A DNA stretch of 64,000 bases from Acinetobacter sp. ANC 5054. GTDB taxonomy: Bacteria; Pseudomonadota; Gammaproteobacteria; Pseudomonadales; Moraxellaceae. A model generated the notes under the pieces. The model was not told the DNA's origin. It saw only the letters and a list, made by a program, of their open reading frames with translations, and ran no database searches. Below are positions 52,397 to 56,723 of this stretch, piece by piece; position 1 is the stretch's first letter; each line of letters opens with the position of its first letter. The DNA lies in NCBI RefSeq assembly GCF_002135295.1, contig NZ_NEGG01000009.1, forward strand, positions 1 to 64,000. Direction: 5' to 3'. Both the position numbers and the translations under genes were made by a program.

Positions 52397-55231
52397 TTAT
52401 TCAGCTACGATAGCTAAAGCATCATTTACGAGCTGAGCTTGTTGTTTTGCGTGCAAATATGGTGAACCACAAGCCGGTGCAGCAGAAGCTTCACGACCTG
52501 CATAACTAATACGAACTTGTTTGCCCGCTTTCATCACGTCGTCATATAGACGCGGAGCGATGAATAACCATGCACCTTGGTTCTTCGGTTCTTCTTGAGC
52601 CCAAACCAATTCTTTAACGTTTGGATATTGTGCAAGAACTTCAGCAAGACGTGCTTCTGGGTACGGATACAATTGTTCAATACGAACGATTGCTGTGTTG
52701 TTCAATTCTTTTTCACGACGTTTTTCAAGTAAGTCGTAGTAAACCTTACCACCACAAAGCACAAGACGAGTTACGTCTGACTTGTTGATGTTGTCGATTT
52801 CGTCGATCACAGTTTGGAATGTACCGTTTGCAAGCTCTTCTAAAGTAGACGTTGCAAGTTTGTGACGAAGAAGAGACTTCGGTGAAGTCACGATCATTGG
52901 CTTACGAATCGGACGAAGTGCTTGACGACGCATCGCATGGTAAATCTGCGCTGGTGTAGTCGGTGTGATCACTTGCATGTTTTCTTCAGCACATAACTGT
53001 AAGAAACGCTCTAAACGAGCTGATGAATGCTCAGGACCTTGACCTTCAAAGCCGTGTGGAAGAAGCATAGTCAGACCGCATACGCGTTCCCACTTGGTTT
53101 CGCCAGACGCGATGAACTGATCGATTACAACCTGTGCACAGTTTGCGAAGTCACCAAATTGCGCTTCCCAAATCACGAGGCTCTTCGGAAGAGTCGTTGC
53201 ATAACCGTATTCGAATGCCAATACCGCCATTTCTGACAATAATGAGTCATAAATTGCAGTACGTGGTTGGTTTTCTTTCAAGTTACATAATGGAATGTAA
53301 GTTGAACCATCTACTTGGTTATGAAGTTTTGCATGACGGTGTGAGAATGTACCACGACCAACGTCTTCACCTGTTAAACGAACAAGGAAGCCTTCATCTA
53401 GAATAGTTGCGTAAGCTAAAGTTTCAGCAGCACCCCAGTTCAATGGCATTTCACCAGTCTGCATTTTCAGACGGTCATCAATCACTTTAGCAACCTGACG
53501 TTGCATCACGAAGCCTTCTGGAAGCTCGCGCATTTTCGCACCAAGCTCTTTTAGACGTTCGATTGGGAAAGTAGTATCCCATTTGTCTGTGTATTCGTGA
53601 CCTAAATAAGGTTTCCAATCCACAAACATTTTTGTATTTGGTTCAAGTACAAGTGCATTCGCAACGTGTTTACCTGCTTCAAGGTCAGAACGATACTGTT
53701 CAACCATTGCATCAGCAGCAGCACGATCAAGCACGCCTTCTTGTACTAGTTTGTCAGCATAAAGCGTACGAGTAGTCGCTTTCTTCGTGATGACTTGATA
53801 CATCATTGGCTGAGTTGCAGCTGGCTCGTCTGCTTCGTTATGACCACGACGACGGTAGCAGAACATGTCAATGACAACGTCTTTACGGAAAGTATGACGG
53901 AAATCATGTGCCAATTGTGAAACGAACAGTACCGATTCAGGATCATCACCATTTACATGGAAGATCGGTGCTTGGATCATTTTCGCAATGTCAGTACAAT
54001 ATTCTGTAGAACGCGCATCACGTGGATCAGATGTTGTAAAACCAACTTGGTTATTTACAACGATATGAACTGTACCACCTACTGTGTAACCACGAGTTTG
54101 TGACATTTGGAAGGTTTCTTGGTTTACACCTTGACCAGCAAATGCAGCATCACCGTGTACAATGATCGGTAATACATCATCACCACCAATGTCTTTACGA
54201 CGTACTTGACGAGCACGTACAGAACCTTCTACTACAGGTCCAACGATTTCTAAGTGTGATGGGTTAAACGCTAATGCTAAGTGAACTTCGCCACCTGGAG
54301 TCATTACGTTTGAAGAGAAACCTTGGTGGTATTTAACGTCACCAGAACCTTTCTTATGAAGTGATTTACCTTCAAACTCACCAAATAGGTCAGCTGGGTT
54401 TTTACCCATGATGTTTACAAGAAGGTTTAGACGGCCACGGTGAGGCATACCGATCACAACTTCTTTACAACCAACAGAACCTGCGCGTTGAATAAGTTCA
54501 TTCACCATAGGAATGAAAGATTCACCACCTTCAACACCGAAACGTTTCGCACCAACGAATTTGTTACCAAGGTATTTTTCAAGACCTTCAGCAGCAGTCA
54601 AGCGTTCTAAAACGTGTTTTTTCTGTTCTACGGTATAACCGAATTGACCACGTGCACCTTCAAGACGTTGTTGAATCCAACGTTTTTCTTTGGTATCAAC
54701 AATGTGCATGTATTCAACACCAATAGAAGCAGTATATGTTGCTTCCATTGCTTGAACCATTTCGCCTAAAGTTGCTTCAGACTTACCGATTGCAAGGTTA
54801 CCTGTATTGAAAACAGTGTCTAAATCAGACTGAGTCAAACCATGCGACGCAAGGTCAAGATCAGGCACGATTTCACGCTTAGCAAGACCAAGTGGATCTA
54901 ATTTTGCGTTTTGATGACCACGGTTACGGTATGCGGCAATAAGTTGTAATACACCGATTTGACGGCGCTCATGTTCAGAGCTTACTGCACTTTGCACTAC
55001 AGGCTGAACACGGCTTGAATTACGACCTAATAATAGGAATTGCTCACGTACATTGCTATGTGGCTGATCACCTTTCGGGAATTTATCGAAGTATGTACGC
55101 CAGTCAGCTTCCACTGAGTCTGGAGCGGTTAAATACTGCTCATAAAGTTCTTCAATATACGCTGCACTGTCAGCGCTAAGTTCAGTGTCAAGACGCAGTG
55201 CGTCAGCAACTTCTTGCATTTGTGGACCCAT
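52397..55231 (-). CDS. sucA: 2-oxoglutarate dehydrogenase E1 component, 944 aa
   Basis: Thiamine-diphosphate enzyme that decarboxylates 2-oxoglutarate. N-terminal E2-binding helix region ([21 protein letters not shown]), active-site block [23 protein letters not shown]/Mg motif [20 protein letters not shown] with [17 protein letters not shown], and FAHRHAKLH-type segment ([13 protein letters not shown]). The length is near 930-945. The ATG at 55231 has AGGAA too close (about 1 nt); an alternative at 55219 (MQEVADAL) is plausible. Preceded by a structured leader. Confidence 0.96.
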
Positions 55232-55282
55232 TTCCTATTGCAAAAACATTTCAGGATGCTTTTTAAGCGAACCCATGATTAA

Positions 55283-55431
55283 TAATGTCAAATTGGTAAC
55301 ATGACATTAGTCCCCATTAGGCTGAAGCCATGAGGCGTTATCACTACATTAGGATTACCCAATGTGATTAATGAACAATAACGCCCTCAGCGGCATCATT
55401 ACTCATTGAGAAATACCCGACAAATATCGGG
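55283..55431 (-). promoter_or_regulatory. Structured 5' leader of sucA, candidate cis-regulatory RNA
   Basis: Three stem-loops in order on the minus strand: CCCGA/TCGGG (55431-55416); a long composite stem pairing ATAACGCCCTC (55378-55388) with GAGGCGTTAT (55332-55341) with one bulged G, extended by GCC/GGC (55394-55392 with 55329-55327) and capped by CACATT/AATGT-type pairing; then TAATGTCA/TGACATTA (55309-55283). Its position just before the sucA ribosome site suggests regulation of sucA expression. The Rfam sucA motifs of other proteobacteria are a precedent, but I could not test a match. Confidence 0.45.
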
Positions 55432-55970
55432 CAATTTTTTGCAAATCGTCTTAGAAAAATTAAATTTAGACTGATTAACTTTTCTAAATCGACTTATCAA
55501 CATTTATATACCGAGTTCAGAGGGTAATTTGTTGAAAAAATGTACCTATTTCAAACTCATTTTTCGCATATAGTGATTCTCTAAATGCTAACACGTCCAA
55601 ACATTTTCAATTGATTTTTTTGACACATACCACCCATAAATTAGCAAAATACATTGTGCGTATTTTCATCTATGATATGGTGCTACAGATAAAAATATCT
55701 TTCAATTGAGACCAAAGTCTACGTCAATAAAACTTTAGCGACAGCACATAAAAATAAAAGAGAGCAGATATTACTATCCCCTCCCTTCTAATTACGTTAC
55801 ATAATAACATTTTCTAATGTTTTTGACAGACTTGAACGAGCGATTCATCAATAAATAACCATATACGCATCGTTTTATACTTTAAATCTATTTCATTTAC
55901 GGTTAAAAGCAGTCCCAAGCGAATCAACCACATTATTTAGCTTGCACAATCATCAATTTTTCTTATGACA

Positions 55971-56006
55971 AAAAAAAAAGCGCACCAACTGGCACGCTTT
56001 TTTTTG
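55971..56006. terminator. Terminator of sdhB
   Basis: AGCGTGCCA / TGGTGCGCT stem (two G-T pairs) flanked by A9 and T9 runs. Confidence 0.75.
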
Positions 56007-56015
56007 AAGAATCTA

Positions 56016-56723
56016 TTAGCCTAGATCTAAAAGCATGTTACGGATGTGACCGATTGCTTTAGTCGGGTTTAAACCCTTAGGACATACAGATACACAGTTC
56101 ATAATACCTTTACAACGGAACAGCGAGAATGGGTCGTCAAGACGAGCCAAACGCTCTTGAGTTGCTGTATCACGAGAATCAATGATGAAACGATATGCGT
56201 TCAACAATGCTGAAGGACCCAAGAATTTGTCAGGGTTCCACCAGAATGATGGGCATGAAGTTGAACAACATGCACAAAGAATACATTCGTACAAACCATC
56301 AAGGTGCTCACGCTCTTCAGGAGACTGTAAACGCTCTTTAGGAGGTGCAGGTTGGTTGTTAATCAAGAACGGATGGATCTTGTCATATTGATCATAGAAC
56401 TGATTCATATCTACAACCAAATCTTTCACTACTGGAAGACCTGGAAGTGGACGAATTGTAATTGTCTCAGGTAAGTCGTTTAGGTTCCAAAGACACGCTA
56501 AACCGTTTTTACCATTGATGTTTACACCATCAGAACCACAAATACCTTCACGGCACGAACGACGGAACGTTAAAGATTCGTCTTGTACTTTTAATGCTAG
56601 AAGCGCATCAAGCAACATACGGTGCTTGTCAGTCAACTCTAGTTTAAAAGTTTGCATGTACGGTGCTGCATCCTTATCAGGATCGTAGCGGTAGATATTA
56701 AATGTACGAGTACCTCTACTCAT
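56016..56723 (-). CDS. sdhB: Succinate dehydrogenase iron-sulfur subunit, 235 aa
   Basis: Carries [2Fe-2S] ligands in CREGICGSDGVNINGKNGLAC (~residues 57-77), [4Fe-4S] in CILCACCSTSCP and [3Fe-4S] in CKGIMNCVSVCPKGL. It passes electrons from FAD of SdhA to ubiquinone in complex II. GGGAG lies 7 nt before the ATG, 14 bp after sdhA. Last gene of sdhCDAB. Confidence 0.98.
   Translation of the reverse strand: MSRGTRTFNIYRYDPDKDAAPYMQTFKLELTDKHRMLLDALLALKVQDESLTFRRSCREGICGSDGVNINGKNGLACLWNLNDLPETITIRPLPGLPVVKDLVVDMNQFYDQYDKIHPFLINNQPAPPKERLQSPEEREHLDGLYECILCACCSTSCPSFWWNPDKFLGPSALLNAYRFIIDSRDTATQERLARLDDPFSLFRCKGIMNCVSVCPKGLNPTKAIGHIRNMLLDLG

What the first reader, a model, noticed from the sequence alone, without database searches (positions are those of the whole stretch)
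55219..55440. Structured sucA leader, possibly a new cis-regulatory RNA
The minus strand upstream of sucA folds by eye into three stems, the central one long (10-11 bp plus extensions, with a bulged G and paired arms on both sides of a capped hairpin). Related noncoding leaders precede sucA in other proteobacteria (Rfam sucA and sucA-II motifs), so selection for RNA control of this gene is known in principle. No terminator or ribosome-site sequestration is obvious. The sequence did not look like those motifs to me.
Basis: partly seen in the sequence, partly recalled or inferred. Interest (0 to 1): 0.55.

Follow-up and report, generated by a model that had tools for sequence, protein, structure and literature searches.

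The report
Conserved RNA leader controlling sucA
The messenger RNA of a central energy-metabolism gene (sucA) in Acinetobacter bacteria begins with a long, strongly conserved folded RNA that is not in the RNA family library searched and probably works as a switch controlling how much of the enzyme is made.

Summary
The finding is real and larger than reported. The sucA leader folds far better than shuffled sequence (z = -4.39). Compensatory changes across Acinetobacter support seven helices, P0-P6, at 55254-55492. On a tree, 84 pairs hold 35 same-branch double compensatory events, against 1-6 when slid. G-U cells outnumber A-C 786 to 45, so the folded strand is the sucA mRNA. The leader query matched 169 of 175 genomes of the genus. 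Two loci of a sister genus match both models. No match to Rfam sucA or sucA-II was found. Constraint continues into the coding region: a hairpin at codons 6-10. Near-invariant UUUUUGCA can pair with UGCAAAAA near the 5' end, closing the domain, or with UGCAAGAA at the start codon; the two states lie within 2 kcal/mol in 62 of 82 loci. Best reading: a new class of cis-acting sucA leader that switches translation. The structure is shown; the switch and its trigger are inferred.

The parts
55502..55510 (-). TATATAAAT, possible -10 box; transcript start inferred about 55494-55497
   Evidence: A TATA-like box within 45 nt upstream of P0 in 54 of 126 loci (29 of them with the box ending 15-17 nt before P0) against 239 of 2640 control 45-mers; the consensus promoter scan does not list it; no start site was mapped
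55446..55492 (-). P0, AU-rich hairpin at the inferred 5' end, 17 pairs
   Evidence: 9 of 17 pairs with two-sided change in A1, 10 of 17 in A5; 12 double events on the tree
55436..55444 (-). 5' strand of the closing helix PC (UUGCAAAAA), in the linker between P0 and P1
   Evidence: Near-invariant; pairs with 55238-55246 over 9 or more uninterrupted pairs in 116 of 134 loci, against 162 of 2680 control 16-mers; the linker was located by a sequence pattern, which favours it
55414..55433 (-). P1 hairpin, 8 pairs
   Evidence: 99.8% of cells paired, 3 of 8 pairs two-sided; 8 double events
55370..55407 (-). P2, long central hairpin, 16 pairs
   Evidence: 2 of 16 pairs two-sided in A1, 12 of 16 in A5; 1 double event
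55347..55364 (-). P3 hairpin
   Evidence: 5 of 6 pairs two-sided; 8 double events
55312..55335 (-). P4 hairpin with internal part
   Evidence: 5 of 9 pairs two-sided in A2, cells 84% and 95% paired in its two parts; 9 of 9 in A6; 1 double event
55283..55309 (-). P5 hairpin, loop UUACCAAU conserved
   Evidence: 7 of 9 pairs two-sided, 9 of 9 in A6; 3 double events
55254..55274 (-). P6 hairpin
   Evidence: 3 of 8 pairs two-sided, 6 of 8 in A6; 2 double events
55238..55246 (-). UUUUUGCAA, shared strand: 3' strand of PC or 5' strand of P7
   Evidence: Near-invariant
55211..55246 (-). P7, possible start-site hairpin UUUUUGCA/UGCAAGAA with nested GGA/UCC
   Evidence: 99.6% and 100% of cells paired in A2, but 10 of 11 pairs never vary and no double event; one outer pair is U-A in 7 and A-U in 5 of the 16 loci of A6
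55233..55236 (-). AGGA, Shine-Dalgarno-like
   Evidence: Sequence; in the 132 in-genus loci listed, absent in the sister-genus loci L139 and L140
52397..55219 (-). sucA, start codon 55217-55219 (MQEV...)
   Evidence: The in-frame ATG at 55231 is excluded as a general start: L079 has TAA between the two ATGs and L127 a frameshift
55192..55204 (-). P8, coding-region hairpin GACGC/GCGUC, codons 6-10
   Evidence: Stem keeps standard pairs in 133 of 134 loci; codon 8 ends in G in 132 of 132 in-genus loci with amino acids L, S, M, P and W
55160..55175 (-). P9, possible coding-region hairpin CGCUG/CAGCG, codons 15-20
   Evidence: Low third-base variation, but pairing not kept in all loci; weak

Best explanation
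The sucA mRNA carries a leader of about 280 nt that folds into a 5' hairpin (P0) and a multi-helix domain (P1-P6) and acts in cis on sucA. Its 3' segment UUUUUGCAAU is shared by two exclusive pairings. It can pair with UUGCAAAAA downstream of P0; the domain is then closed and the ribosome site and AUG are free (ON). Or it can pair with UGCAAGAA at the start codon, trapping AGGA in GGA/UCC (OFF). A signal read by the P1-P6 domain (a metabolite, a protein or a folding/translation cue) shifts the balance and so sets translation of 2-oxoglutarate dehydrogenase E1. SHOWN: the helices P0-P6, their strand, their conservation, and the two pairings as possibilities of similar predicted energy. INFERRED: that both pairings form in cells, which state is ON, and the trigger.
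For: Fold z = -4.39. Covariation in A1 (58 sequences, 19 of 47 pairs two-sided), in A2 (72 sequences, 15 of 37), in sequences kept out of the A1 seed (A5: 22 sequences, 32 of 47) and in divergent sequences kept out of A2 (A6: 16 sequences, 25 of 37). Tree-aware count: 35 double events in 84 pairs against 1-6 slid. Sense strand: 786 G-U to 45 A-C cells. Found by model R2 in 64 of 64 in-genus loci tried and in sister-genus loci L139 and L140; one R2 place in the own genome. Closing helix: 9 or more uninterrupted pairs in 116 of 134 loci, 12 in L141 of another genus. PC and P7 energies: median difference 0.6 kcal/mol, 62 of 82 within 2. Coding-side constraint and P8. In sucA-II the 3' strand of the closing helix likewise can fold onto the ribosome site, 4 of 4 loci.
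Against: The two competing helices hardly vary, so covariation says little about them: 10 of 11 P7 pairs never vary in A2, none has a double event, and only one outer pair exchanges in A6. The coding strand of P7, ATGCAAGA, also occurs at the sucA start in L142, L146 and L148, which have no match to model R2, so it was probably not made by the leader. PC is short in L128, L129 and L131 (5-pair run), and its linker was picked by a sequence pattern. Both states lie above the unconstrained ensemble (medians 1.5 kcal/mol for PC, 0.9 for P7), the minimum-energy fold of the window's leader has neither, the differences are within the error of the method, and no control set was run for them. AGGA is 13 nt from the start codon and absent in the sister genus. 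No transcript, ligand or expression data were available.
Confidence: 0.5

Rival explanations
1. A structured leader that sets mRNA stability or processing (5' hairpin P0 as a shield, further stems as RNase barriers) without any switch.
For: P0 sits at the inferred 5' end and covaries strongly; the helices P0-P6 are mostly independent hairpins.
Against: Does not explain the near-invariant UUUGCAAAA linker, the invariant start-site block, or the constraint within codons 1-23.
Confidence: 0.2
2. A protein-binding leader: a TCA-cycle enzyme, a ribosomal or other RNA-binding protein binds P1-P6 or the start-site hairpins and represses or activates sucA (autoregulation).
For: Several hairpins with conserved loops (P5 UUACCAAU) and possible hairpins on both sides of the AUG suit a protein footprint.
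Against: No protein partner is indicated by any search; one strong place only in the genome, so no shared site on a second mRNA was seen.
Confidence: 0.15
3. A platform for small RNAs with Hfq: the A-rich linker and the U-rich 3' strand are Hfq sites, and base-pairing RNAs set translation.
For: A- and U-tracts are conserved.
Against: The A. baumannii Hfq RIL-seq paper PMC12802169 has no mention of sucA in its main text (term search only; supplements not read); multi-helix covariation is not needed for an sRNA target.
Confidence: 0.1
4. The conserved pairs belong to DNA or to an antisense plus-strand RNA (dyad operator, or a terminator formed by P1 on the other strand).
For: P0 is a long inverted repeat, and P1 followed by CAATTTTTTG reads as a terminator on the plus strand.
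Against: 786 G-U against 45 A-C cells; the sense strand folds better in 8 of 8 loci folded both ways, -98 against -73 kcal/mol in this one.
Confidence: 0.03

Closest known systems
sucA-II RNA (Rfam RF01758)
   Same: Leader directly upstream of sucA in Pseudomonadales; long 5' hairpin, second hairpin, then a helical domain whose closing helix ends next to the ribosome site (alignment). In 4 of 4 loci its closing 3' strand can also fold onto the ribosome site.
   Different: No match at E up to 10 in this leader; other sequence, other number and order of helices; the closing strand embraces P1 here but starts after the second hairpin in sucA-II; found in 4 of 145 genomes drawn from the order, all in one family, not in this genome.
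sucA RNA (Rfam RF01070)
   Same: Noncoding leader of sucA; called a probable riboswitch and Burkholderiales-specific in PMC4603805 (passages).
   Different: No match here; other taxon.
sucC RNA (Rfam RF01759)
   Same: Listed beside sucA-II as a candidate structured RNA of gamma-proteobacteria in PMC2864571 (table passage).
   Different: No match here.
Translation-controlling riboswitches in general (recalled)
   Same: A domain whose closing strand competes with a ribosome-site hairpin.
   Different: No ligand known; switch not shown.

Membership tests
sucA-II (RF01758) | Covariance-model score at or above the gathering score of 70 bits | tested here: not met
   Window: none at gathering, none at E <= 10 in 55100-56020; own genome none, with strict filters; 12 further loci none at E <= 1
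sucA-II (RF01758) | Position directly upstream of sucA | tested here: met
   Leader ends at the sucA start codon 55219
sucA-II (RF01758) | Consensus structure: two 5' hairpins, then a domain closed by GGGGC/GUCCCC next to the ribosome site | tested here: not met
   Different helices and different closing strands; only the general plan is alike. Conversely, models R1 and R2 do not match L135-L138 at E <= 1
sucA (RF01070) | Covariance-model score at gathering | tested here: not met
   Window; 12 further loci:
Cis-acting structured leader of sucA (general kind) | Covarying RNA structure on the sense strand upstream of sucA in many species | tested here: met
Cis-acting structured leader of sucA (general kind) | Effect on sucA expression | not testable with these tools
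   Needs reporters
Riboswitch | Direct binding of a small ligand | not testable with these tools
   Needs in-line probing
Upstream open reading frame (leader peptide) | Reading frame kept across species | tested here: not met
   The 13-codon frame ending at TAG 55235-55237 is broken by indels among species (alignment, judged by eye)

The most novel reading that the evidence does not exclude
The leader is a new riboswitch class, spread through Acinetobacter and its nearest genera, that senses a product or substrate of the enzyme it controls (2-oxoglutarate, succinyl-CoA or a relative) and sets sucA translation by letting one strand choose between closing the sensor domain and trapping the start codon. 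sucA-II would be an independent or very distant solution with the same logic.
Probability: 0.27. Interest if true: 0.82.

Novelty: new variant of a known kind. Interest (0 to 1): 0.64.

Why it matters
2-oxoglutarate dehydrogenase sits where carbon flow meets nitrogen assimilation (established knowledge). Structured leaders of different make precede its E1 gene in Burkholderiales (sucA motif, PMC4603805), in one family of Pseudomonadales (sucA-II; taken to be Pseudomonadaceae, inferred) and, from this work, in Acinetobacter. That makes RNA control of this step look repeatedly selected, and the trigger can be sought directly in a harmless laboratory strain (A. baylyi). The genus includes hospital pathogens, so a large regulatory RNA on a core gene is also of practical interest. 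The alignments and named helices here are enough to design the decisive probing and mutant-rescue tests.

Tried and rejected
Upstream ORF: a 13-codon frame just before the ribosome site was considered and dropped because indels break the frame among species (judged by eye).

ATG at 55231 as the sucA start: dropped. L079 has a TAA between the two ATGs and L127 a frameshift.

Antisense or DNA-dyad reading: disfavoured by G-U asymmetry.

Alternative partner for P2 (55334-55341 with 55378-55385): all 8 pairs possible in 45 of 58 loci, 5 or fewer in four, and by eye lost in the clade with a different P2. Left as an observation.

P9: pairing not kept throughout; not claimed.

Rows dropped before counts. 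Of the 134 loci, L133 and L134 (SucA 57-65% alike, no motif) were left out. Of the other 132, 85 were kept at under 93% identity. I left 13 of the 85 out of A1 and A2, and 14 more out of A1, because they looked too divergent for a plain alignment. A5 took these 27 plus L139 and L140 as sources; 22 of 29 passed E <= 1e-6. A6 took the 13 plus L126, L129 and L130; 16 of 16 passed E <= 0.001. A5 and A6 are fitted to the model's structure, which favours it. In one search, 82 of 87 loci were computed, five were skipped by my pattern, and L059 was probably measured at a wrong position. In one search L115 gave no linker.

Results against the reading: R1 found a sense match at E <= 1 in 63 of 64 in-genus loci, not in L128. 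R1 also scores the P0 inverted repeat on the opposite strand. Double events are uneven: P0 12, P1 8, P3 8, P5 3, P6 2, P2 1, P4 1, P7 0. In P0 as many one-sided changes broke a pair as kept one (36 and 36). P4 and P6 have many unpaired cells. One of five measures on A2 (further pair types) was reached by 48 of 500 shuffles. Outside the genus, 20 of 21 genomes gave SucA; among their 20 loci R2 at E <= 10 matched L139 and L140 only (a second L139 match, E 2.9, lies elsewhere), and R1 at E <= 1 matched L139, L140 and weakly L141, L142 and L146. The consensus promoter scan lists no promoter at the TATA-like box.

Literature: PubMed Central searches listed no paper on a sucA leader in Acinetobacter; subscription papers are mostly not covered. 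The published A. baumannii start-site map that I recall (Kroger and colleagues, 2018) was not seen. What was seen: passages of PMC2864571, PMC5295007, PMC4603805, PMC12646401 and PMC12802169; a term search of PMC12455925 with no occurrence (55); search listings only for all others. No supplement was read.

Full report
Setting. The window lies in a genome whose nearest named relatives by SucA are Acinetobacter gandensis and A. amyesii (99% over 116 residues). On the minus strand the sdh genes (sdhB ends at 56016; gene names from my own reading of the ORFs) are followed by a terminator-like stem and T-run (read in the sequence). A gap of 796 bases runs to the sucA start codon at 55219, and the next genes of the 2-oxoglutarate dehydrogenase operon follow sucA. 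sucA therefore probably has its own promoter. A TATATAAAT box lies at 55502-55510. A box of this kind lies within 45 nt upstream of P0 in 54 of 126 loci where P0 was located, against 239 of 2640 random stretches further upstream. The simple consensus scan lists no promoter there. The inferred transcript starts just before P0.

The observation. The region given folds with z = -4.39. Rfam 15 has no match at gathering in the window except two tRNAs, and no sucA-type family at E up to 10 in 55100-56020.

Relatives. A BLAST of the 262-base leader matched 169 of 175 genomes of the genus at E <= 0.001. For the 6 without a match and 21 weak ones, the SucA start region was located in 24 of 27, among them 3 of the 6. 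One of these three, L127, carries the leader by model R2. The other two, L133 and L134, encode a much more distant SucA and have no R2 match. In all, 134 in-genus loci were read.

Structure. From the 5' end: P0 (AU-rich, 17 pairs), linker UUUGCAAAAAA, P1, P2 (16 pairs), P3, P4, P5, P6, then UUUUUGCAAUAGGAAAUGGGUCC and the start codon. On A1 (P0-P3, 58 sequences) 95.1% of cells pair, 19 of 47 pairs change on both sides, and 0 of 500 shuffles reach these values. On A2 (P4-P7, 72 sequences) it is 92.0% and 15 of 37, 0 of 500; one further measure, pair types, was reached by 48 of 500. Sequences kept out of the seeds give still stronger figures: A5, 22 sequences, 32 of 47 pairs; A6, 16 sequences, 25 of 37. 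Both are fitted to the structure, but the same pairs slid by one to three columns give 6-13 (A5) and 8-16 (A6) pairs with two-sided change. Counted on a tree so that inherited changes count once, the 84 pairs hold 35 double compensatory events on single branches. The same structure slid by one to four columns holds 1 to 6, and 6000 random column pairs average 0.021 each. The events fall mainly in P0 (12), P1 (8) and P3 (8), with P5 3, P6 2, P2 1, P4 1 and P7 0. One-sided changes kept a pair 234 times and broke it 101 times, against 58-129 kept and 68-134 broken in the slid versions. G-U cells outnumber A-C cells 786 to 45, so the RNA is the sense strand.

Reach. Models R1 and R2 find one strong place each in the own genome (the second R1 match, E 0.05, is the P0 repeat on the other strand). 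R2 finds 64 of 64 in-genus loci tried and none of four sucA-II loci nor L133 or L134. Over 41 genomes of the genus, 39 have the sucA match, and three weak extra matches (E 0.18 to 0.81) are at chance level. Of 20 loci from other genera of the family and order, R2 matches at the leader only in L139 and L140 of one sister genus. R1 matches these two and weakly L141, L142 and L146. In L141, from a further genus, I read by eye P0, the UUUGCAAAAAUGC linker and GCAUUUUUGCGA before the start.

Into the coding region. Third-base variation is mostly low in codons 1-23 (exceptions are codon 7, at the P8 loop, and codon 17) and mostly higher after codon 24. GTT is used in 130 of 130 valines at codon 4 although it is 33 of 252 valine codons in codons 13-60. 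GAC is used in 128 of 128 aspartates at codon 6, against 183 of 585. Codon 8 ends in G in 132 of 132 loci while encoding L, S, M, P or W. Codons 6-10 form the hairpin GACGC/GCGUC in 133 of 134 loci. Protein sequence alone does not explain this.

The switch hypothesis. UUUUUGCAA next to the ribosome site is complementary to two places: the linker after P0 (PC, closing the whole domain) and the start codon region UGCAAGAA (P7, with a nested GGA/UCC over the AGGA). PC has 9 or more uninterrupted pairs in 116 of 134 loci, against 162 of 2680 random 16-mers of the same leaders, and 12 pairs in L141 (the linker was found by a sequence pattern, which favours the observed side). Constrained ensemble energies put the two states a median of 0.6 kcal/mol apart, P7 slightly favoured, within 2 kcal/mol in 62 of 82 loci; PC is the better one in 28 of 82. 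Both lie above the unconstrained ensemble (medians 1.5 and 0.9), and the minimum-energy fold of this leader shows neither. These figures fit a bistable element but do not prove one. The strands are nearly invariant, so covariation supports P7 at one outer pair only (U-A in 7 and A-U in 5 of 16 loci; probably one evolutionary change). The start ATGCAAGA is also found in L142, L146 and L148, which have no R2 match, so the leader more likely evolved to fit it than the reverse (inference).

Comparison. Rfam's sucA-II, in 4 of 145 genomes drawn from the order and all in one family, has a similar plan. In 4 of 4 loci the 3' strand of its closing helix can also fold onto the ribosome site (local fold -9.0 kcal/mol in three, -6.7 in one). 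The logic may thus be shared while sequence, helices and membership are not.

Verdict. A real, strongly conserved structured leader that the Rfam 15 searches here do not recognise, so a new class of a known kind. The translation switch is the best-supported mechanism at about even odds. The trigger is open.

Noticed in passing
window 55378-55385 with 55334-55341: The 3' strand of P2 (GGCGUUAU) is also perfectly complementary to AUAACGCC between P3 and P4; all 8 pairs possible in 45 of 58 loci but not throughout the genus. A possible second pair of exclusive helices.
   Followed up: partly
window 55530-55545: GTACATTTTTTCAACA about 20 nt upstream of the TATA-like box; GTACAT or ATACAT lies 30-90 nt upstream of P0 in 64 of 126 loci (no control run). 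Perhaps an activator site or -35 region.
   Followed up: partly
window 55160-55175: Possible coding hairpin P9 (codons 15-20): serine codon 15 is TCC or AGC in 121 of 132, both ending in C opposite GCG at codon 20.
   Followed up: partly
window 55229-55231: An in-frame ATG twelve bases before the sucA start is kept in most loci, and in the sister genus, although it cannot be the general start; it may be misannotated as such in public genomes (not checked).
   Followed up: partly
window 55283-55309: The loop of P5, UUACCAAU, is strongly conserved although unpaired; a candidate contact or binding site.
   Followed up: no
window 55970-56000: Strong terminator-like stem with a run of T right after sdhB, separating the sdh and suc operons here (read).
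   Followed up: no
L135-L138: In these sucA-II leaders the stretch around GUCCCCUUACCGAGGGUGAC folds onto the ribosome site using the same strand that closes the domain; I did not see this described in the passages read.
   Followed up: partly
L133, L134: Two genomes placed in the same genus by the tool have a SucA only 57-65% alike and no such leader.
   Followed up: no
L110, 324-392 (-) and 142-353 (+): Sub-threshold Rfam match to the Rhizobiales sRNA Atu_C9 (E 8.8e-05, 31.7 bits against a gathering score of 40), outside the leader.
   Followed up: no
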